DNA from: Clostridia bacterium | Lineage (GTDB): Bacteria > Bacillota > Clostridia > Oscillospirales > CAG-272 | Direction of reading: 5' to 3' | Length of the DNA: 40,083 nucleotides | Assembly: GCA_017467085.1 (NCBI GenBank) | Contig: JAFTSW010000060.1 | Coordinates: forward strand, 1 to 40,083 | Part shown: piece after piece, positions 21,107 to 34,537 of the stretch | Numbering within the stretch: the first letter of the stretch is position 1 | Layout: each line of letters opens with the position of its first letter | Program-made: the position numbers and the translations under genes | Notes under the pieces: generated by a model | Databases searched by the model: none | Told to the model about the DNA's origin: nothing | The model's input: the letters and a program-made list of their open reading frames with translations, nothing else

Positions 21107-22174
21107 TTATACCAATTTTTTAACAGTCTTGTAAATTTCCTTTGCCATACGGTAAAATCCAAGATCATTGGGGTGACAGCCGTCTACAAAGCAGTTTTCT
21201 CTGTCCTCCCTGCCGAAGAGCTTCTGCCCGTCCACAAAGTACACGTTTTCGTCGCCGTTTTTCTTGGCGTTCCGATAGGTGCGCTTGACAACGGCGCGGC
21301 GCTTGGTGGAGCCTACGGTATCGGAGTCAAAATCGGGCCTTGAAACCATTACGACAGGCACGTTCGGATGGTGCTTGCGGAAATGCAGGAAAAACCTCTC
21401 GTGGGTTTTTTCAAGATGCTCCACATTGGGCGCATTATGGTCATAATCGTATACGAAAATGCTGCACTTGATATTTTCAAAATATTCCGCCATTCTGTCC
21501 TCCGCCTTGGCGTTGCCGCTAAAGCCGAGATTGATAAAGTCTGTATTCGTCCACTTGGAGATATACGCCTGGTAGGCGTTATCGGGACGGCAGGCGCATC
21601 CGCCCTGGGTGATGGAGGAGCCGTAATACAAAATAGGCGCTCCTTCCTTATAGGGCAAGCCCTTCTCTACCGTTGCGCCCTCGTCAACACCCACGGAAAG
21701 AGAAAGCAGGTTGTTATAGAGAGGAAAATACAGGGTAAAATGCTGCATTTTCTTCCCGTTTCCGATTCTCATTTTGGAACGGAAGCCCTTTTCGCTGTCG
21801 GGAAAGGGAAAAAAGCCTGCCGCATAAGAGGTCTTTCCGTCCTCCTCGCGAATCAGAGAAAAGCCGGCTGCGCCCGACATAGGCATATGACGCATTTTTT
21901 CGAGATTGTACTCTACTATAAGCTCCAGGTTTTCCGAGTCCGTGGAGAAGCGAAGTCTGCCGCCTGCGGTATGGGTATTCAGGTAGGCAACGCCCTCGCT
22001 GACCTCCCTTGCCACATCGCTTGGCATACGCACAAAGCGCCCGCTTTCCTCCTCGTAACGCACACCGTACAAGTCGAAAGCAGGAGAAGGAATGCGGTAA
22101 AACCGCATTCCTTCCTCGGAAAAATCGGCGCCTACGGCAAAGTTTTTATCAATTTTAGTGATATCAACTCCCAT
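21107..22174 (-). CDS. SGNH/GDSL-family esterase, 355 aa
   Basis: Predicted carbohydrate deacetylase or related ester hydrolase. Residues 1-170 form a beta-sandwich N-domain typical of two-domain SGNH esterases; 178-355 is the flavodoxin-like catalytic domain. Block I is YYGSSITQGG with nucleophile Ser187, block II has the oxyanion glycine in NLGFSGNAK (about 218), block III is the degenerate VYDYDHNAPN, and block V DGCHPND supplies Asp331 and His334. No signal peptide, so intracellular. Last gene of the minus-strand operon, 14 bases after the YbjN-like gene. Substrate not predictable. Confidence 0.88.
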   Translation of the reverse strand: MGVDITKIDKNFAVGADFSEEGMRFYRIPSPAFDLYGVRYEEESGRFVRMPSDVAREVSEGVAYLNTHTAGGRLRFSTDSENLELIVEYNLEKMRHMPMSGAAGFSLIREEDGKTSYAAGFFPFPDSEKGFRSKMRIGNGKKMQHFTLYFPLYNNLLSLSVGVDEGATVEKGLPYKEGAPILYYGSSITQGGCACRPDNAYQAYISKWTNTDFINLGFSGNAKAEDRMAEYFENIKCSIFVYDYDHNAPNVEHLEKTHERFFLHFRKHHPNVPVVMVSRPDFDSDTVGSTKRRAVVKRTYRNAKKNGDENVYFVDGQKLFGREDRENCFVDGCHPNDLGFYRMAKEIYKTVKKLV

Positions 22175-22188
22175 ATGGCAAGCCTCTC

Positions 22189-22671
22189 TTATGCCTTTTC
22201 GCTGTCAATAAACTGCTGCAGGGTAATGGTGCCCTTGGAAAGGGACAGGAACTTGTCGTTGTATCTGTCTACCGTCGAGGTAGCAACGTATACCATATAC
22301 TCAAACAAGTCGGGGGTAAGCTGCGCGCCGCCCTGATAGCTTGCGGTCAGACGGAAGGTGATTTCACCGTCGCTGATGTCATAGTCAAAGGAGCCGTCTA
22401 CCAGTCCGTAGCCTGCTACGCAAACCGCAACAGCGCCCTCGACTCTCTTGTCCTCGGGCATATGGAAGGGCATCCAGGAAATGTAGGAAACGATGCAGCG
22501 CTCGGTGTCCACTCTCATCAAAAAGTCAACGGGAATGTCATCGCCGTGGAGGGTGCATCTGATTTTCAGCTTCTCCTCGTCCTTCTCATAGCGCCAGTTG
22601 TGGCTATCCATCATAGCGCAGATGTTGGCAAAGGCTTCCTTGCCCTTTAAGATTTTTTGCTCGTTATCCAT
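22189..22671 (-). CDS. YbjN-domain protein, 160 aa
   Basis: The fold is that of YbjN/type III chaperone-like domains: an N-terminal helix, then CTLHGDDIPVDFLMRVDTERCIVSYISWMPF (about 39-69) and a C-terminal helix (LFEYMVYVATSTVDRYNDKFLSLS). Such small domains usually bind other proteins. ATG 22671 follows GGAGG at nine bases. It is placed 46 bases after the stop of the large AAA+/M41 gene and 14 before the esterase, without a promoter. Adjacency suggests it could be an adaptor or substrate of the protease; that is inference. Confidence 0.8.
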   Translation of the reverse strand: MDNEQKILKGKEAFANICAMMDSHNWRYEKDEEKLKIRCTLHGDDIPVDFLMRVDTERCIVSYISWMPFHMPEDKRVEGAVAVCVAGYGLVDGSFDYDISDGEITFRLTASYQGGAQLTPDLFEYMVYVATSTVDRYNDKFLSLSKGTITLQQFIDSEKA

Positions 22672-22717: not shown

Positions 22718-25700
22718 TTACTTGTTCTGCCTGTAAATATCTTCCAGCTCGTTGCTCTTCAAGTGGGTCTTGGAAAGAAGCGCCTCCACCAAGGCATCCA
22801 GCACCCTGCGATTTTCCGCAATGCAGGTCTTGGCAGCCGCCAGCTCTCTTTCCAGTACCTCGTTGACGCCCTCACGTACCTTGGCAGCCAGCTCGCCGTT
22901 CATTTCGGCGGCGCTGATAACCCCAAGACCGAAGGCATCCTCCATACCGTAGGTGCAAATCATTTCCCTGGCAAGGTGGGTTGCGGTATGCAAATCCCCC
23001 GAGGCACCCGTTGTCAAGCCGTCCTTATCGCCGTAGCACACTAACTCCGCGGCTCTGCCGCCCAAGGAGGTTCTGATACGGGCAAGAAGGTCATCTCTGG
23101 TATAGACGCCCTTGTTTTCGTTATCCGCGTGCTGCATATAGCCGCCGTGATTGCCTCTGGCAACAACGGTCAGATAGGAGGGGATTTCCCCTGCCGCCAT
23201 ACACACCAGCGCGTGTCCTGCCTCGTGCCTTGCGGTACGAAGGAGAGCCGCCTCGTCATGCACCTTGCTTTCACCGCCGTTGAAGCTTTCAAAGGCTTCC
23301 TCCAGCATAGCGTCATCCACCACACCGTTCTCGGACTTGATGGCGTTACGCATCGCAAATTCCATCACGTTATCCAGCTCTGCCAGGCTCATCCCCACCG
23401 AGCGCATGGCGATATTCTTCCATTCCTCCTCGGAGATGTGCAGAACGGGATGGCGGTCGATGTACATTTTCAGATACTGTTCTCTTTCCGCACGGTCGGG
23501 CAAATCCACCAAGAGGCGTCTGTCAAAGCGGCGAAGGAGCGCCGCATCCAGGCTACGGGGGCCCGACTGCTCCACAGTATAGTTGGTGGCAGCCAAGACG
23601 AACACGGGCTTGGAGGAGTTGCTCTTGAAGCCGTCCATTTCGGTCAAGAATGCCGTCAACACATCGGCGCTGGTTTCTGCCGCGGCAGAATCGCTGTTGC
23701 GGTTTTTGCCGATGGCGTCAATCTCGTCGATAAAGAGAATGGAGGGGGCATAGCGTCTTGCCGTTCTGAAAAGCTGATGCACCATTTCGGCGCCCTGTCC
23801 CACGTATCTTTGCAGGAACTGGTTGCCCTCAGCGGCAATAAAGGTCACGTCCGACTCTCCTGCCATCGCCTTGGCAAGAAGGGTTTTACCCGTTCCGGGA
23901 GGGCCGTAGAGCAAAACGCCCTTAGGCGCCTTGACGCCCTTCCGCAGATAGGCGGTGGGATTTTTCAGATAGCGGACGAAGTAGGAAAGCTCATCCTTGG
24001 CGTCCTTGGCACCGATAACGTCCGAGAAGCGGACATTCGGCTTGCTGACGTCATTGAGAATGCTGCCCGAATCCTCGGCAGAAACCGAGAGCTTCAAGGC
24101 GCAATCAAAGAGAGAAACCGTTGCGGTGGTGCCGTCCTCGGACACCGTTTGCGCCGTTTTATAGGAAAGAATCTTGTTTGCCTTGGCAAGGCGCAGCATA
24201 TTCTTGCGGCGGTATGCCGAGGCACAGTGGGTGAACACCGTTTCCGCTACGTTGTCATCCTTGTCGGGACAAATGATGCCAACAGCCCCAGCCTTAGCGA
24301 AGGAGAGGAACTCCTCCTCGTTGATTTCTCTTTCCTTGGTTTGGAGAATGCACAGGGCAACGTCGGTTGCCGAGGCGGCATACAGGAAGAAATCGCCGCC
24401 CTCGGAGAGAATGTCCTCGGTATTCAGCACATTCATCTTCTCGGCTCTGGGGTGACAGGTGACGTCACAGATAATCAAGGAGATTTCCTGCTTAAAGAGG
24501 ATATCCTTGGCTTCCTCAATAGAGGAGGTGGCGTGAATCTTGATGTTGCTGACCTTGCGCTTCAGCTCCTCTGCCCTATCCTCATCGGCAAAGAGGAGGA
24601 TTTCAGGGGTGGACTCATCCACGAAGAGCGAGCGGATTTCCTCATTATCCTGAGGGATAATCACGTCAAAGACGATTTCCTTCAATTCGTACAGTCCCAC
24701 GCTCTGGGTGCTGGCAGACGCCAAGCGAAGTAGCTCGTACAGCTCCTCGTAGAGGAATGCGGAGGCGCGCCCCGTTACCGTTCTGGCATCCGCCTTTCCG
24801 CCCTCGGCATAGAGGAGCGCGGCAGGCACGTTTTCCTTGATTTTGATGGAGATGGGGAGAGCCGAGGTCAATGCCTTGGCACTCTTTTCTAACTCCTTGG
24901 TGGTAATTTTCAGAAGGTCGCCCGCGCTGAGGTGATTGAACATCACCACGTTGCCCGAGGCAAAGCGGGAGCAAATAGCGGCAGGAAAATAGGGGACCTT
25001 GGTTTCGGGATTGACGTCGGTACGCAGCGCCTTGATAACCGTTTTACGGGGGATAGAGGACAGCAGCGCATTCTGCTCATCCTCATACAGCTGATGACCC
25101 GCGTTAGTGGTGAAAATCAGGATGGTATCCTTGAAGGAAACCTCCTCATCGGTATAGTTGTCACGGAGTCTACCCGCGTCCAAAATCTGCAAGAACAGGT
25201 TGATGACGTTGGTATGCACCTTTTCAATCTCGTCAAACAGGAGAACGCTCAAGGGGTTCTCGGCAACGAAGCTGGTTACGTTACCCGCCTTACCGTTTTT
25301 ATACACCTTGTCGCTTCCGCAGAACTCGATAGCCGCCTCCTTGTCGGAGTACTCACTCATATCGAAGCGGCAATAGGGCAAGCCGAGGGTTGCGGCAACC
25401 TTCTCTGCCAAGAAGGTTTTACCCACACCGGGAGGGCCCGCAAACAGGAAGGTAGCGCGGGGCTTGCGGCGCTCGGGCATCGAGATGGCCTGCAGCTCGG
25501 ACTGGAAATAGCCCGCGGTAAAGACGTTGATGGCCTGGTCCTGCCCCAAAATGCTTTCGGAGAGAGTCTGCTGCATCTTCTTGGTCTTTTCTACCAGGGC
25601 ACCGAGATAGTAGGGATTATCCTTATAGAGAGAGGGCATTTCTCCGTCCTCCTCATTCTCCTCGGCGCTTTCGGCAGGCTGAGAAAAGAGGTCATCAAAG

Positions 25701-26209
25701 GTGATGGGCTTCTCTTCCTTGGGCTCCTCTGCCGACTCTTCCTCTTTCTTTTCCTCGACGGTAGGGACAGGCGGGGGAGGGGGCGCTTCTACCTTATCTC
25801 TGCTGATGATAGCCAGCGCCTTCTTCACGTAGGAAGGAAGCTCCGCCAAGAGGCGCTTCGCCAGAACGTCCGCCGAAAGAGATGCACAGGAGGAGAACTC
25901 CAGATTCAGAAGGGCGGAGCGCAGAAGGAGCGCATCCATAGAATAGTTCTCACCGCCCGACTTCATCACCAGGGTAATAGCCGTCAAGGCACGGGTGGGT
26001 TGCTTTTTAACGTCGGGAAGGAGGGCTAAGGTCTTCTCCCACTCTTCCCTGTTATCTTCTACAACGGGAACACGGTTGGTGCCTGCCTTCCTTGCCATCA
26101 AAACGATGGCGTTGATAAAGAAGCCTGCGGTAGCAGATTCCTTGCCCTCATTTTGCGCAAGCTCCGTGGCGCTTGCCAAAAGGGCTTCTAACAGTTTTGT
26201 CTTCTTCAT
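22718..26209 (-). CDS. Soluble fusion: Clp-type AAA+, receiver-like domain, FtsH-type AAA+ and M41 zinc protease, 1163 aa
   Basis: Residues 1-135 are helical and resemble a Clp N-domain. Residues 140-200 are an acidic, proline-rich linker. Residues 215-510 are an AAA_2 module with Walker A GPPGVGKT (258-265), Walker B LLFDEIEK (DE 326-327) and a sensor-2-like ADARTVTGR. Residues 534-665 read as a receiver-like alpha/beta domain: EILLFADEDR, IICDV (Asp582), LYAAS, GAVGIICP. Residues 722-960 are an FtsH-type AAA+ with GPPGTGKT (769-776), pore loop RYVGQG (801-806), ILFIDEIDAIG (DE 828-829) and the RRFDRR second region of homology. Residues 985-1163 are peptidase M41 with HEAGH (995-999) and the third zinc ligand Asp1072 in TTGASGDL. 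All catalytic residues of both ATPases and the protease are intact. FtsH's two N-terminal membrane helices are absent. Start ATG 26209 after AAAGGAA; 16 bases from pncB in an operon. Confidence 0.9.
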   Translation of the reverse strand: MKKTKLLEALLASATELAQNEGKESATAGFFINAIVLMARKAGTNRVPVVEDNREEWEKTLALLPDVKKQPTRALTAITLVMKSGGENYSMDALLLRSALLNLEFSSCASLSADVLAKRLLAELPSYVKKALAIISRDKVEAPPPPPVPTVEEKKEEESAEEPKEEKPITFDDLFSQPAESAEENEEDGEMPSLYKDNPYYLGALVEKTKKMQQTLSESILGQDQAINVFTAGYFQSELQAISMPERRKPRATFLFAGPPGVGKTFLAEKVAATLGLPYCRFDMSEYSDKEAAIEFCGSDKVYKNGKAGNVTSFVAENPLSVLLFDEIEKVHTNVINLFLQILDAGRLRDNYTDEEVSFKDTILIFTTNAGHQLYEDEQNALLSSIPRKTVIKALRTDVNPETKVPYFPAAICSRFASGNVVMFNHLSAGDLLKITTKELEKSAKALTSALPISIKIKENVPAALLYAEGGKADARTVTGRASAFLYEELYELLRLASASTQSVGLYELKEIVFDVIIPQDNEEIRSLFVDESTPEILLFADEDRAEELKRKVSNIKIHATSSIEEAKDILFKQEISLIICDVTCHPRAEKMNVLNTEDILSEGGDFFLYAASATDVALCILQTKEREINEEEFLSFAKAGAVGIICPDKDDNVAETVFTHCASAYRRKNMLRLAKANKILSYKTAQTVSEDGTTATVSLFDCALKLSVSAEDSGSILNDVSKPNVRFSDVIGAKDAKDELSYFVRYLKNPTAYLRKGVKAPKGVLLYGPPGTGKTLLAKAMAGESDVTFIAAEGNQFLQRYVGQGAEMVHQLFRTARRYAPSILFIDEIDAIGKNRNSDSAAAETSADVLTAFLTEMDGFKSNSSKPVFVLAATNYTVEQSGPRSLDAALLRRFDRRLLVDLPDRAEREQYLKMYIDRHPVLHISEEEWKNIAMRSVGMSLAELDNVMEFAMRNAIKSENGVVDDAMLEEAFESFNGGESKVHDEAALLRTARHEAGHALVCMAAGEIPSYLTVVARGNHGGYMQHADNENKGVYTRDDLLARIRTSLGGRAAELVCYGDKDGLTTGASGDLHTATHLAREMICTYGMEDAFGLGVISAAEMNGELAAKVREGVNEVLERELAAAKTCIAENRRVLDALVEALLSKTHLKSNELEDIYRQNK

Positions 26210-26225: not shown

Positions 26226-27671
26226 TTATTCTACTCTTCCGCGCAGCATTTCCTGCTTCAAGGTCCAAAGCCTGTCGGACAAGTCAACGTAATACCGATG
26301 AGGATTGTCGAAGCGCTTGACCTCATCCCAAAGAAGAGAAAGCTGCTCCTTGCAATAGGCGCGGATTTCCTCAATGTCGGGGAGCTCATAGACACACTCA
26401 CCGTTCAAGAATACGGGAATTTGCAGGGGAACGATTTTGTAATTATGCACCGTTTTATGCTTCCAGGTGTTGACGGGGTCAAAGAGAAGCAAGGGCTCCT
26501 TTTCGTTCAGCACCTCATCGGCAAGGGTAATATAGTCGGCAATCGCCTGCCCCGTTTCGCCATCAAAGATGCGGTAGGGCTTTTTATAGCCGGGGTTGGT
26601 GATTTTCTCAATATTTTCGGATATTTTGATTTTGGGACGGATGCTTCCGTCTGCCCTTTCAATGGCAACGAGCTTATAGACGCCGCCGAACACGGGAGAG
26701 GATTTGGAGCAAATCAAGCGCTCTCCAACGCCGAAGGCGTCAATTTGAGCCCCCTGCGACAGAAGCGTCTTTATCAGGTTTTCATCCAAGGAGTTGGTGG
26801 CAATGATTTTGCAATCCGTCAGCCCTGCCTCATCCAGCATCTTGCGAATTTTCTTGCTCAGATAGGCGATGTCGCCCGAATCCAAACGCACAGCGTACTT
26901 TTTGATGCCCTTGGGAAGCAAAACCTCCTTAATGGCACGAATGGCGTTGGGAACGCCGCTATGCAATACGTCATAGGTATCAATCAGAAGGGTGACGTTT
27001 TCGGGATACAGCTCGCAATAGGTGCGGAAGGCGGTATACTCATCGTCAAACATCTGTACCCAGGAATGCGCCATCGTACCCGTCGCGGGGACGTTGAAAT
27101 CACGTTCTACCATTGCACAGGCGGTGGAGCTGCACCCCCCAATATACGCGGCACGAGCGCCAAGAATGGCGGCAGAGGCTCCCTGCGCGCGGCGAGAGCC
27201 GAACTCAGACACGGGGCGCCCGTCGGCAGCGCGCACGATACGGCTTGCCTTAGTGGCAATTAAGGACTGGTGATTGACACACAACAGCAGGAAGGTTTCA
27301 ATCAGCTGTGCCTGGATAGCGGGGGCGCGCACGGTGATGATGGGCTCACCGGGGAAAATAGGCGTTCCCTCCTTCATAGCGAAGATATCGCCCGTAAAGC
27401 GGAAATGTCTTAAATACTCCAAAAATGCCTCGTCAAACTGACCCTTGGAGCGCAGAAGCGCAATATCCTCCTCAGTGAAACGAAGATTTCTGATATAGTC
27501 TACAATTTGCTCAAGACCTGCAAACACGGCGTAGCCCGCACCGTCGGGAATCGAACGGAAGAATACATCAAAATACGTAATTTCTTCTCCCCGTCCCAGA
27601 CGAAAATAGCCGTTGCTCATAGTCAGCTCGTAATAGTCGCAGAGCATCGTATAGTTTTCGTTGTTCAGCAT
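26226..27671 (-). CDS. pncB: Nicotinate phosphoribosyltransferase, 481 aa
   Basis: Converts nicotinate and PRPP to nicotinate mononucleotide in NAD salvage. Diagnostic segments are DYYELTMSNGYF (12-23), the FDVFFR substrate loop, EFGSRRAQG (about 155) and the catalytic histidine region GTMAHSWVQMF (about 198-208), IDTYDVLHSGVPNAI, and VRLDSGDIAYLSK. Length and order match the longer Firmicutes PncB. It lies 17 bases after a 38-aa membrane microprotein gene and 16 before the AAA+/M41 fusion, so it is cotranscribed with them although its metabolic role gives no obvious reason. Confidence 0.96.
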   Translation of the reverse strand: MLNNENYTMLCDYYELTMSNGYFRLGRGEEITYFDVFFRSIPDGAGYAVFAGLEQIVDYIRNLRFTEEDIALLRSKGQFDEAFLEYLRHFRFTGDIFAMKEGTPIFPGEPIITVRAPAIQAQLIETFLLLCVNHQSLIATKASRIVRAADGRPVSEFGSRRAQGASAAILGARAAYIGGCSSTACAMVERDFNVPATGTMAHSWVQMFDDEYTAFRTYCELYPENVTLLIDTYDVLHSGVPNAIRAIKEVLLPKGIKKYAVRLDSGDIAYLSKKIRKMLDEAGLTDCKIIATNSLDENLIKTLLSQGAQIDAFGVGERLICSKSSPVFGGVYKLVAIERADGSIRPKIKISENIEKITNPGYKKPYRIFDGETGQAIADYITLADEVLNEKEPLLLFDPVNTWKHKTVHNYKIVPLQIPVFLNGECVYELPDIEEIRAYCKEQLSLLWDEVKRFDNPHRYYVDLSDRLWTLKQEMLRGRVE

Positions 27672-27826: not shown

Positions 27827-28855
27827 TTATTTTTTTTCACGGTAGGCGTTTGTTTTCAAGGCGATGCCCGATACGTTGGGTCCGTTATGGATTTGCTCGG
27901 GCAGGTGCGCCAAAATCGTTTCAAGACCGTTGACAACGGCAAACTCGGGGTTGGGTACACGGCGGCATTTTACCCCCGTTACCCCATATATCATATGGTC
28001 GATGCCCTCAAGTAATGAGCCGCCGCCCGATAAAATAATGCCGTTTTCAAAGGTTTCTCTTACTGCCTCGGCAGGAATTTTGGAGAGCGCCTCGCAAACC
28101 ACCTCTAAAACGGCGGCACAGGGCTCCTCCAACGCCTCAAACATTTCGTCCGAGGAAATGACAGTGCGGCGCATACTGTTATCCGATGCCCGTCCCACGA
28201 TTTCCATAGGTCTTCTCTCGCCCTCAACCCAGACGGTGCCTATTTTGCGCTTGATTTCCTCCGCCATCTGATAGCCGATACGCAAATGACTCTTGCGCTT
28301 GATATAGTTGGCAATGGCAAGGGTAAAAGCATAGCCTGCCTTATCGATGCAGAAGCGGTTGACAAGCTCGCCCTCGGACACCACCACCACGTCCGTGGTA
28401 TAGCAGCCGATGTCTACGGCGATATAGCTCTTTTCCATTGAATAGCCGGCGCCTATTAACGCGGCGATGGGGGAATACACCTGGTAGCATTCACGGTAGC
28501 CCGCGCGCAGCACCATTTCCGCATATTCTCCCTCCTCCTCGGCGGTGAAGCCGCAGGGAATGGACACCACGGCGCGCACGTCGTCATCAATGGGGAAATT
28601 TTGGGTACGGCACCAGGAAAGCACGCGCTCCGCTAAGGGCATATCGGCGAAAATGCCCTCGATAAAGGGATATTGGGGATAGAAGGAGCCTGAGGACTCG
28701 GCAATCAGCTTTTGGGTGGCGTTGCCGAACTTGATATGCTCTCCCGTAATTCTGTCTACCGCCACCATAGCAGGCTCACAAACCACGTTGCCGCCCGCCA
28801 AGACGTTGGCGCGAACAAAAGAACAGCCAAAGTCAATGCCGATTCCCTTGCGCAT
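27827..28855 (-). CDS. MreB-like bacterial actin, 342 aa
   Basis: Actin-fold ATPase of the MreB/Mbl group, which guides lateral wall synthesis. Phosphate-1 loop GIDFGCSFVRANV (5-17), connect region VVSIPCGFT, phosphate-2 AVDIGCYTTDVVVVS (about 146-160) and adenosine motif NGIILSGGGSLLEG (about 288-301) are all present. Length is typical. The cysteines in both phosphate loops and weak similarity to canonical MreB sequences in between suggest a paralogue and not the main MreB. First gene of the operon with its own promoter; GGAGG precedes ATG 28855. Confidence 0.85.
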   Translation of the reverse strand: MRKGIGIDFGCSFVRANVLAGGNVVCEPAMVAVDRITGEHIKFGNATQKLIAESSGSFYPQYPFIEGIFADMPLAERVLSWCRTQNFPIDDDVRAVVSIPCGFTAEEEGEYAEMVLRAGYRECYQVYSPIAALIGAGYSMEKSYIAVDIGCYTTDVVVVSEGELVNRFCIDKAGYAFTLAIANYIKRKSHLRIGYQMAEEIKRKIGTVWVEGERRPMEIVGRASDNSMRRTVISSDEMFEALEEPCAAVLEVVCEALSKIPAEAVRETFENGIILSGGGSLLEGIDHMIYGVTGVKCRRVPNPEFAVVNGLETILAHLPEQIHNGPNVSGIALKTNAYREKK

Positions 28856-32695: not shown

Positions 32696-34537
32696 ATGCG
32701 CCTGACTCTTCCCTCTTACGTGGCAAATGCCATTGAAAAATTAAACGCACGGGGCTTTGAGGCTTACGCCGTTGGCGGCTGCACCAGGGACCTTTTGCGC
32801 GGCGAGGCGCCAAACGACTACGATATTGCCACCTCTGCCCTTCCCGAGGAAATTCTCTCCGTTTTTGAGGGAGAGCGCACCATTCCCACGGGACTTGCCC
32901 ACGGCACCGTTACCCTTCTTTCGGAGGGCGGTCCCTTGGAAATTACCACCTACCGCATAGACGGCGGCTACACCGACGGCAGACACCCCGATGCCGTTGC
33001 CTTCTCCTCCTCCTTCCGCGAGGACGCCAAGCGCCGCGACTTTACCGTCAACGCTATGGCCATTCATCCCGACGGTACCCTTCTTGACTATTTCGGGGGG
33101 CAAGAGGATTTGGAAAGGAAAATCATTCGGGCGGTGGGCGACCCCGCTTTGCGCTTTGAGGAGGACGCTTTGCGTATTTTACGGGCGATGCGCTTTGCCT
33201 CGGTTCTGGATTTCGAGATTGAAGAAAAGACCGCAGAAGCGATGCACGCCGAACAGGAGCGCTTGCGTCTTGTCAGCGCCGAAAGAATCCGCGAGGAATT
33301 AGCCAAGGCGCTTTGCGGCAAGGGCGTTTTGCGGATATTTACCGCCTTTTCCGACATTGTGGGCTTTATTCTGCCCGAGCTTGTGCCTTCTATGGGCTTT
33401 GACCAAAAAAGCCGCTACCATTTGTTTGACGTATACACCCATACTTTACACGCCGTTGCGGCGGTAAAGCCCGAAAGAGTCTTGCGGCTGACGATGCTTT
33501 TACACGACGTCGGCAAGCCCTTCGTTTTCTCCCTGGATGAAAAGGGGGAGGGGCATTTTTACGGGCACGGCGACAAGAGCGTAGAGATGGCGGCAGAGGT
33601 TCTGCGACGGCTTCGCTTTGATAACGCAACCGCCGACACCGTTTTGCGGCTGATTCGCTATCACGATTTGCCGCTTGAGAATTTCTTCACCCATCTTTCC
33701 CGTCTGCGCGGACGGCACGGCGACCCGTTTTTGTTACAGCTTTTGGAGGTAAAAAGAGCGGACAATCTGGCGCAAAATCCCGCATTTGCCACAAGGCAGG
33801 AGAGGCTTGCCGAGGCAGAGGCGCTTCTGCGCGCGGAAATGGAAAAGGAGCCGCCCTTTACCGTGGCCTCCTTAGCTGTCAACGGCAAGGATTTGCTTGC
33901 CTTAGGGCTTCCGCCCTCGCCGCAAATCGGCAGTATTCTTTCTCATTTGACCGAGGCGGTCTTGGACGGTCGGGTGCAAAACGAAAAGGAAGCCCTGCTT
34001 GCTTATTTCAAGGAAAATAACGCCTTGTTTTCCACCCCCTTGGAGATTGAGCGCAAGCTCTTGATTGCCTACCCCGACACGGCGCTTTTAGAGGCGCAAA
34101 AGGGGGTACGGATTTTTGATATTGAGCAGACCTATCTCTACAACGAGGACGAGGCGCTGACCGAGCGCGTCCGACTGCGCCGCGAGGGCGCGTCCGTTGC
34201 CTATTTTCATACCGTCAAGCGGCGGCTCTCCGCCTTGACCGCCGAAGAGCAGGAGGCGCAAATCACCAAGGAGGAATTTGAGGCGCTGCTGTCCCGACGG
34301 GACAAAACGAGAGCAACGGTGCAAAAGCGGCGCTACGCTCTTCCCTACGGCGCTCACACCCTGGAAATTGACCTCTACCCACAATGGAAGCGGCAAGCCG
34401 TTTTAGAGGTGGAGCTTGCCTCCGAAAAGGAGCGCTTCTCCCTGCCCCCTTACCTTTCCGTTTTACGGGACGTCACGGCGGACAAGCGCTACAAAAACGT
34501 TTCCCTTTCCAGAGAATTTCCCGATGAGGAAGAATAA
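32696..34537 (+). CDS. cca: CCA tRNA nucleotidyltransferase fused to a CYTH domain, 613 aa
   Basis: Residues 1-430 are a class II CCA-adding enzyme: head [23 protein letters not shown] (24-46) with catalytic Asp41 and Asp43, [10 protein letters not shown] (113-122), [13 protein letters not shown] and an HD-domain segment with LLHDVGKP (His270-Asp271). Residues 448-610 are a CYTH (CyaB/thiamine triphosphatase) domain opening with EIERK (450-454), the ExExK metal and triphosphate signature, then [23 protein letters not shown] and [10 protein letters not shown], and a [11 protein letters not shown] strand. Both halves keep their catalytic residues. AAAGGAGG is seven bases from ATG 32696. The tRNA-Leu here already encodes CCA, so tRNA end repair is the likely job; the CYTH role is open. 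Confidence 0.93.

What the first reader, a model, noticed from the sequence alone, without database searches (positions are those of the whole stretch)
22718..26209. Soluble double-AAA+ FtsH-like protease with a receiver-like insert
One continuous 1163-aa frame joins a Clp-type AAA+ module, a receiver-like alpha/beta segment, an FtsH-type AAA+ module and an intact M41 protease. Both Walker A and B sets, the pore loop RYVGQG, HEAGH and the third zinc ligand are all visible. FtsH is normally a membrane hexamer with one AAA+ ring. Here the membrane helices are missing and a second ATPase sits N-terminal, so the protein could form a stacked two-ring, cytosolic protease with its own unfoldase. I know of no standard named family with this order. 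The receiver-like part has an Asp (582) after IIC in the place of the phospho-acceptor, which raises the possibility of signal-gated proteolysis (inference).
Basis: partly seen in the sequence, partly recalled or inferred. Interest (0 to 1): 0.92.

Follow-up and report, generated by a model that had tools for sequence, protein, structure and literature searches.

The report
Soluble Clp-FtsH two-ring fusion protease
A gut Clostridia bacterium carries a real, conserved protein-shredding machine that fuses the front half of one protease family (Clp) to the back half of another (FtsH), has lost the membrane anchor, and travels with genes for nucleotide signalling, so it may be a new kind of signal-controlled protease.

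The parts
22718..26209 (-). Whole gene, 1163 aa, ATG start at 26209, stop at 22718-22720
   Evidence: the ORF listing; 79 distinct complete homologous frames, window included
25790..26209 (-). Residues 1-140: Clp_N-like substrate/adaptor domain
25595..25789 (-). Residues 141-205: acidic, proline-rich variable linker
   Evidence: sequence; median identity to the window 0.14
24665..25594 (-). Residues 206-515: Clp D2-type AAA+ module with Walker A 258-265, pore-loop Tyr303, Walker B 326-327, Arg415
   Evidence: Pfam AAA_2; NCBIfam ClpA model positions 446-689, E 4e-48; invariance
24182..24610 (-). Residues 534-676: receiver-fold domain; Asp582 codon at 24464-24466; conserved insert LNxEDxxS after strand 3
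24044..24181 (-). Residues 677-722: beta hairpin and lead-in to the second AAA+ module
   Evidence: strands at model residues 154-164 and 171-182
23255..24043 (-). Residues 723-985: FtsH-type AAA+ module with Walker A 769-776, pore loop RYVGQG, Walker B 828-829, RRFDR
   Evidence: Pfam AAA; FtsH_fam 720-1155, E 4e-108; invariance
22721..23254 (-). Residues 986-1163: M41 zinc protease, HEAGH 995-999, third ligand Asp1072
   Evidence: Pfam Peptidase_M41, E 7e-32; H995, E996, H999, D1072 79 of 79
22189..22671 (-). YbjN-like protein, 160 aa, 46 bp downstream; recurrent partner
   Evidence: Pfam YbjN 6e-05, 23.7 bits over cut-off 22; YbjN cluster in 38 of 86 loci; gap
26226..27671 (-). Nicotinate phosphoribosyltransferase 16 bp upstream (in my clusters it is next to the gene only in the window and its close relative L037)
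   Evidence: NCBIfam E 5e-210; map; gap
21107..22174 (-). SGNH/GDSL hydrolase 14 bp after the YbjN gene; same run of genes, not recurrent in my clusters
   Evidence: Pfam Lipase_GDSL_3 and GxDLY; gap

Best explanation
It is a soluble, cytosolic ATP-dependent protease in one chain. SHOWN: a Clp_N-like domain, a Clp-type AAA+ module with intact motifs, a receiver-fold domain, an FtsH-type AAA+ module with intact motifs and an M41 zinc protease with an intact site, in that order, without a predicted membrane anchor, kept as one lineage in gut Clostridia. INFERRED: it assembles as a hexamer of two stacked rings. The Clp_N domain, perhaps through YbjN adaptors, captures the substrate; the Clp ring unfolds it; the receiver-fold collar couples or gates the rings; the FtsH ring feeds the M41 chamber. 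INFERRED: it is the proteolytic arm of a module that reads NAD-derived or other nucleotide signals, together with the 3-TM TrkA_N/RyR membrane protein, TIR and RyR proteins and Card1-like CARF nucleases, in stress or phage immunity. The receiver-fold domain probably works as a protein or ligand docking switch, not by ordinary phosphorylation.
For: Domain content. Catalytic residues checked 79 of 79; AAA1 pore aromatic 78 of 79; ClpP-docking-like [ILVMF]G[FL] between 372 and 412 in 0 of 79, while the genome's own ClpC-like protein has LGF. No membrane segment in the window protein. One side of a branch, SH-aLRT 100, from 17 FtsH and 4 viral FtsH. Membrane partner in 11 of 12 carrier genomes versus 4 of 50 non-carriers, p 3e-8. 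TIR_2 11 of 12 versus 11 of 50, p 1e-5. RyR 8 of 12 versus 3 of 50, p 2e-5. Neighbours: YbjN 38, membrane partner 30, Card1-like 22, small RyR 16 of 86 loci; any of the four in 64 of 86. RyR-domain phage proteins bind or cleave TIR-made cADPR signals (PMC13232231, abstract and passages). YbjN-family AmyR has a secretion-chaperone-like fold (PMC5398634, start of abstract only).
Against: No oligomer or full-length model was obtained. The AAA2 pore aromatic is less strict: Y47, F11, W4 of 79. In the window's own locus only the YbjN gene of the recurrent set is next to it; its membrane partner is on another contig and its genome has no Card1-like hit. Carrier genomes may simply be rich in such genes: TIR is also in 11 of 50 non-carriers, and Card1-like at the looser cut-off in 6 of 50 against 6 of 12. 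The divergent short form's genome (G264) lacks the membrane partner, TIR, RyR, Card1-like and YbjN hits. No signal synthase is fixed next to the gene: TIR candidates were found in the flanks of 9 of 86 loci.
Confidence: 0.7

Rival explanations
1. A housekeeping or general-stress quality-control protease: a soluble FtsH paralogue that gained a Clp front end, whose nucleotide-signalling neighbours are only fellow passengers of accessory gene islands.
For: YbjN-like genes (38 of 86 loci) and, more rarely, sigma-like, zinc-finger-like and TerB genes nearby suggest general stress. The window run holds a nicotinate phosphoribosyltransferase and a GDSL hydrolase and no immune gene that I recognised. 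The middle domain has no match in the phage or plasmid collections.
Against: Patchy presence, 12 of 295. The window's genome also has FtsH and Clp ATPases, and 10 of 12 carriers show a further match besides this protein at E 1e-60 (in G002 both matches are this protein, G243 has one). The membrane partner is present in 11 of 12 carriers, in several on another contig.
Confidence: 0.2
2. Phosphorylation-gated protease: a histidine kinase phosphorylates Asp582 and switches the rings.
For: Receiver fold with the Asp kept 77 of 79. Receivers control AAA+ rings in NtrC-type activators (NtrC1 and NtrX are among the matches; the mechanism is recalled).
Against: Strict catalytic quartet 0 of 79; a lenient quartet 2 of 79, one of them the window protein. 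No histidine kinase recognised among the neighbour clusters that I named, though none was searched for directly.
Confidence: 0.08
3. The Clp-type module is only a docking or assembly ring, or the chain mixes with the genome's own FtsH or Clp subunits, so no processive double ring exists.
For: No oligomer evidence here. A related published case pairs an inactive N-terminal AAA with an active FtsH AAA (PMC7159879, passages).
Against: Walker A, Walker B and arginine-finger residues of the first module invariant in 79 of 79 and the pore aromatic in 78 of 79; decay would be expected if it were inert.
Confidence: 0.12
4. Assembly artefact that fuses two genes.
For: The window's genome is a draft in 83 contigs and nearly all homologues found are from MAGs.
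Against: 79 distinct complete frames, the others at 32-78% identity to the window's, from separate projects and hosts.
Confidence: 0.005

Closest known systems
FtsH (M41 AAA+ protease)
   Same: AAA+ and M41 order, HEAGH, third ligand Asp, arginine fingers; 38% identity to the genome's own FtsH over 720-1138
   Different: No membrane segment; Clp_N, a Clp AAA+ module and a receiver-fold domain take the place of the membrane part; separate group in the tree
Clp/Hsp100 unfoldases (ClpA, ClpC)
   Same: Clp_N fold and a D2-type AAA+ module with intact motifs
   Different: No D1 module; no ClpP-docking-like tripeptide (0 of 79); the protease is on the same chain and is a zinc metalloprotease
FtsH ternary conflict systems (Kaur et al. 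2020, PMC7159879, passages read)
   Same: A double-AAA FtsH-like protein in a proposed conflict setting
   Different: There both AAA domains are FtsH-type and the first is inactive; here the first is Clp-type and intact, with Clp_N and receiver-fold domains, and the recurrent partners differ
Response-regulator receivers in front of AAA+ (NtrC1, NtrX, HupR)
   Different: Phosphorylation quartet lost except Asp; sits between two AAA+ modules; protease output
Thoeris/TIR and RyR-domain signalling (PMC13232231, abstract and passages)
   Same: TIR and RyR domains occur in most carriers and near the gene in some loci
   Different: No protease of this kind appears in the abstract or passages that I read; the link here is by gene context only

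Membership tests
FtsH (equivalog) | M41 zinc site HExxH plus third Asp | tested here: met
   79 of 79
FtsH (equivalog) | FtsH-type AAA+ module with SRH arginines | tested here: met
   R893 and R894 79 of 79, R897 76 of 79
FtsH (equivalog) | N-terminal membrane anchor | tested here: not met
   Max KD19 1.31 in the window protein versus 3.01 in own FtsH; 4 of 79 homologues reach 1.6, highest 1.92
FtsH (equivalog) | NCBIfam TIGR01241 cut-off | tested here: not met
   362.6 of 600 bits
Clp/Hsp100 (ClpA/ClpC) | Clp N-domain | tested here: met
   Profile-profile match and fold; single-sequence Pfam matches are rare, 3 of 39; short forms L018 and L129 (962 aa) are about 200 aa shorter
Clp/Hsp100 (ClpA/ClpC) | Two Clp AAA+ modules (D1 and D2) | tested here: not met
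   One Clp-type module; the other is FtsH-type
Clp/Hsp100 (ClpA/ClpC) | IGF/LGF-type loop for ClpP docking | tested here: not met
   [ILVMF]G[FL] in 0 of 79 between residues 372 and 412; control: present in 1 of 3 Clp proteins of the own genome, the ClpC-like one
Response-regulator receiver | (beta/alpha)5 receiver fold | tested here: met
Response-regulator receiver | Asp acceptor plus acidic pair, Thr/Ser and Lys | tested here: not met
   Asp 77 of 79; strict quartet 0 of 79; lenient 2 of 79
FtsH ternary system (Kaur 2020) | First AAA domain FtsH-type and inactive | tested here: not met
   Clp-type, Walker A and B residues intact 79 of 79
FtsH ternary system (Kaur 2020) | MoxR and vWA partners | tested here: inconclusive
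   vWA-type clusters only in a few loci (Pfam vWA in L039); MoxR not searched for
Thoeris | TIR gene next to a ThsA-type effector | not tested
   TIR candidates in the flanks of 9 of 86 loci; ThsA not searched for
Type III CRISPR ancillary module | Cas10 present | tested here: inconclusive
   Csm1-type Cas10 over cut-off in 0 of 12 carriers and 2 of 50 non-carriers; Cmr2 type not tested
Two-ring hexamer | Stacked rings in the assembled protein | not testable with these tools
   No oligomer modelling offered; the full-length job was never accepted (for example)

The most novel reading that the evidence does not exclude
A separate class of ATP-dependent protease, the soluble Clp-FtsH double ring, that is the proteolytic effector of a TIR/RyR/CARF nucleotide-signalling immunity or stress module, switched by a repurposed receiver-fold domain between its two rings.
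Probability: 0.35. Interest if true: 0.93.

Novelty: new variant of a known kind. Interest (0 to 1): 0.84.

Why it matters
Known bacterial AAA+ proteases either recruit a separate peptidase (Clp, HslUV, proteasome) or carry one ring with a fused peptidase (FtsH, Lon) (recalled). A single chain with two different, apparently active ATPase modules and an M41 chamber, free of the membrane, would be a natural test of why two rings help. It would also show that FtsH can work as a soluble machine. If the context reading is right, it links proteolysis to the TIR/RyR/CARF signals now being worked out in bacterial immunity.

Tried and rejected
Assembly artefact: rejected by independent copies. Phospho-gating: disfavoured by the lost quartet. 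Type III CRISPR link for the Card1-like neighbour: no Csm1-type Cas10 over cut-off in 12 carriers (Cmr2 not tested). Pfam on the isolated window segments 526-717 and 1-197 gave nothing. Member by member, Pfam gave Response_reg in 14 of 79 and the related-looking OKR_DC_1_N in 26 of 79 for the middle domain, and Clp_N in 3 of 39 for the N-terminus, all weak. PADLOC gave 11 models for the window protein, all to its AAA+ parts, best IetA. The class search with the middle domain found 3 of 391, the third weak. Literature: of ten searches, searches were aimed at the architecture or its context, and at partners; none listed a paper that I recognised as describing this architecture; most subscription journals are not held, so this is weak.

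Rows dropped: from 92 homologous frames I left out L001 (the window itself), 6 identical copies and 7 partial frames, leaving 78 plus the window. The tree used 45 of 81 family rows. The 86 loci are 93 minus L001 and 6 duplicates. Many contigs are short, so neighbour counts are lower bounds. My gene caller took an antisense frame in place of the gene in 5 loci. The 50 non-carrier genomes are my pick from the handles (50 of 283), not a random draw. Profiles A3, A4 and A6 contain some proteins from carrier genomes, which favours those genomes; for the membrane partner, G021 and G197 have rows in the profile, and the other 9 of the 11 carrier hits have none as far as contig names and lengths let me trace. 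Two of the 20 TIR sequences in the local TIR model come from the genome of L059, one of the 9 loci counted.

Full report
OBSERVATION. The frame exists exactly where stated, on the minus strand: 22718-26209, ATG start, 1163 aa. Frame 1 of the plus strand at these coordinates has stops. Pfam finds AAA_2 250-395, AAA 765-902 and Peptidase_M41 987-1158. NCBIfam aligns 720-1155 to FtsH_fam and 207-465 to positions 446-689 of ClpA; none of the 25 models shown (of 64 matching) reaches its cut-off (FtsH_fam 362.6 of 600, ClpA 164.1 of 993). The genome also has a separate FtsH-like protein (700-aa frame, 38% identity) and three Clp-type ATPases.

IS IT REAL. A scan of one-genome-per-species contigs kept the best 80 loci (109 stretches matched a pattern, 84 encoded a relative). 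In the window's order, 12 of 295 genomes carry the protein and one of them carries it twice; the next matches in the list cover only the AAA-M41 part, as plain FtsH does. In the class, the middle-domain profile finds 3 of 391, the third weakly. After dropping the window's own second copy in the set, 6 identical and 7 partial frames, 79 distinct proteins remain including the window's, the others at 32-78% identity to it. Lys264, Glu327, Arg415, Lys775, Glu829, Arg894, His995, Glu996, His999 and Asp1072 are invariant in 79 of 79. A tree of the AAA2-M41 part puts the 45 sampled members (of 81 available) on one side of a branch (SH-aLRT 100) from 17 FtsH and 4 viral FtsH (quick method, no bootstrap, and the tool flags long branches that meet).

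NO MEMBRANE ANCHOR, NO ClpP LOOP. The highest 19-residue hydropathy is 1.31 in the window protein and 3.01 in the genome's FtsH; 4 of 79 homologues reach 1.6, at most 1.92. A ClpP-docking-like tripeptide is absent from residues 372-412 in 79 of 79. Among the genome's three Clp proteins the ClpC-like one shows LGF and the other two do not match the pattern.

SURROUNDINGS. The window run is nicotinate phosphoribosyltransferase, this gene, YbjN-like, GDSL hydrolase, with gaps of 16, 46 and 14 bp. Over 86 loci the recurrent neighbours are YbjN-like (38), a membrane protein (30), a Card1-like CARF nuclease (22) and a small RyR protein (16); 64 of 86 have at least one. The next clusters are in 7 or fewer loci. 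The membrane protein has three hydrophobic segments in its first 200 residues in 27 of 32, four in 4 and one in 1. TrkA_N matches 11 of 23 members and RyR 5 of 23, weakly, and its C-terminus matches RyR structures, best E 0.0017. The Card1-like protein matches CARF4--CARF_PDDEXK in PADLOC, and its profile matches VC1899 and Can2. Other genes near single members include ADP-ribosylglycohydrolase, SIR2 and RtcB. TIR candidates lie in the flanks of 9 of 86 loci by a local model; Pfam puts 9 of the 10 proteins tested, from 8 loci, over the TIR_2 cut-off. In L057 the order is Card1-like, membrane protein, this protease, TIR, RyR.

CO-OCCURRENCE. In 62 genomes (12 carriers, 50 non-carriers of my choice): membrane partner 11 of 12 versus 4 of 50 (p 3e-8); TIR_2 11 of 12 versus 11 of 50 (p 1e-5); RyR 8 of 12 versus 3 of 50 (p 2e-5); Card1-like 6 of 12 versus 6 of 50 (p 0.008), or 6 versus 1 for strong matches; YbjN 5 of 12 versus 1 of 50 (p 7e-4); Csm1-type Cas10 over cut-off 0 of 12 versus 2 of 50. 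The carriers span 8 families of the order. The p values ignore relatedness, the strong cut-offs were chosen after seeing the hits, and the profiles contain some carrier proteins. The window's genome has the membrane partner on contig C72, 12 TIR_2 matches and no Card1-like match. The genome with the short divergent form, G264, has none of the partners.

MECHANISM. Shown: the parts, their order, their conservation and the context. Inferred: a two-ring hexamer in which the Clp_N domain and possibly YbjN (the family member AmyR has a secretion-chaperone-like fold; PMC5398634, start of abstract only) present substrates to the Clp-type ring, the receiver-fold domain forms a regulatory collar, and the FtsH-type ring feeds M41. 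The nucleotide link rests on context plus the 2026 preprint that phage RyR-domain proteins degrade or sequester TIR-made 2'cADPR and 3'cADPR (PMC13232231; abstract and passages read).

KNOWN OR NOT. The closest published double-AAA FtsH case that I found is the FtsH ternary system of Kaur et al. (PMC7159879, passages read): two FtsH-type AAA domains, the first inactive, with MoxR and vWA. Ours differs in the type and intactness of the first AAA module and in having Clp_N and receiver-fold domains. The searches aimed at the architecture or its context listed no paper that I recognised as describing it, in a library that lacks most subscription journals.

VERDICT. Real, conserved, and a new variant of the AAA+ protease kind.

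Noticed in passing
window 32696-34537 (+): One 613-aa frame joins poly(A) polymerase/tRNA nucleotidyltransferase head, HD and a C-terminal CYTH match (E 8e-6), which looks to me an unusual fusion.
   Followed up: no
Own genome G000, 10 contigs: Twelve TIR_2 matches in a 1.9 Mb genome, several in long frames; 11 of 12 carriers of the protease hold 3 to 12 each, the short form's genome none.
   Followed up: partly
L131 and L132 (G090): A genome without the protease that has both a close Card1-like gene and a small RyR gene, on different contigs.
   Followed up: partly
L018/L130 (G264) and L129 (G636): A divergent 962-aa form, about 200 aa shorter; an unassigned ~100-aa gene (c13) lies next to it in L130 and one gene further on in L129.
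   Followed up: partly
L089, L091, L098: The protease beside a very large protein that starts like a von Willebrand A domain (1150-1512 aa) and, in two loci, a ~600-aa GTPase-like protein (my reading of the sequence).
   Followed up: no
L060, L075, L082, L093, L101: Sigma-like gene with a small possible anti-sigma gene in the same gene cluster (names by eye; L060's two proteins gave no Pfam match; map).
   Followed up: no
window 27827-28855 (-): MreB-like protein of 342 aa below the NCBIfam cut-offs (187 of 293 bits), between RecD2 and nicotinate phosphoribosyltransferase.
   Followed up: no
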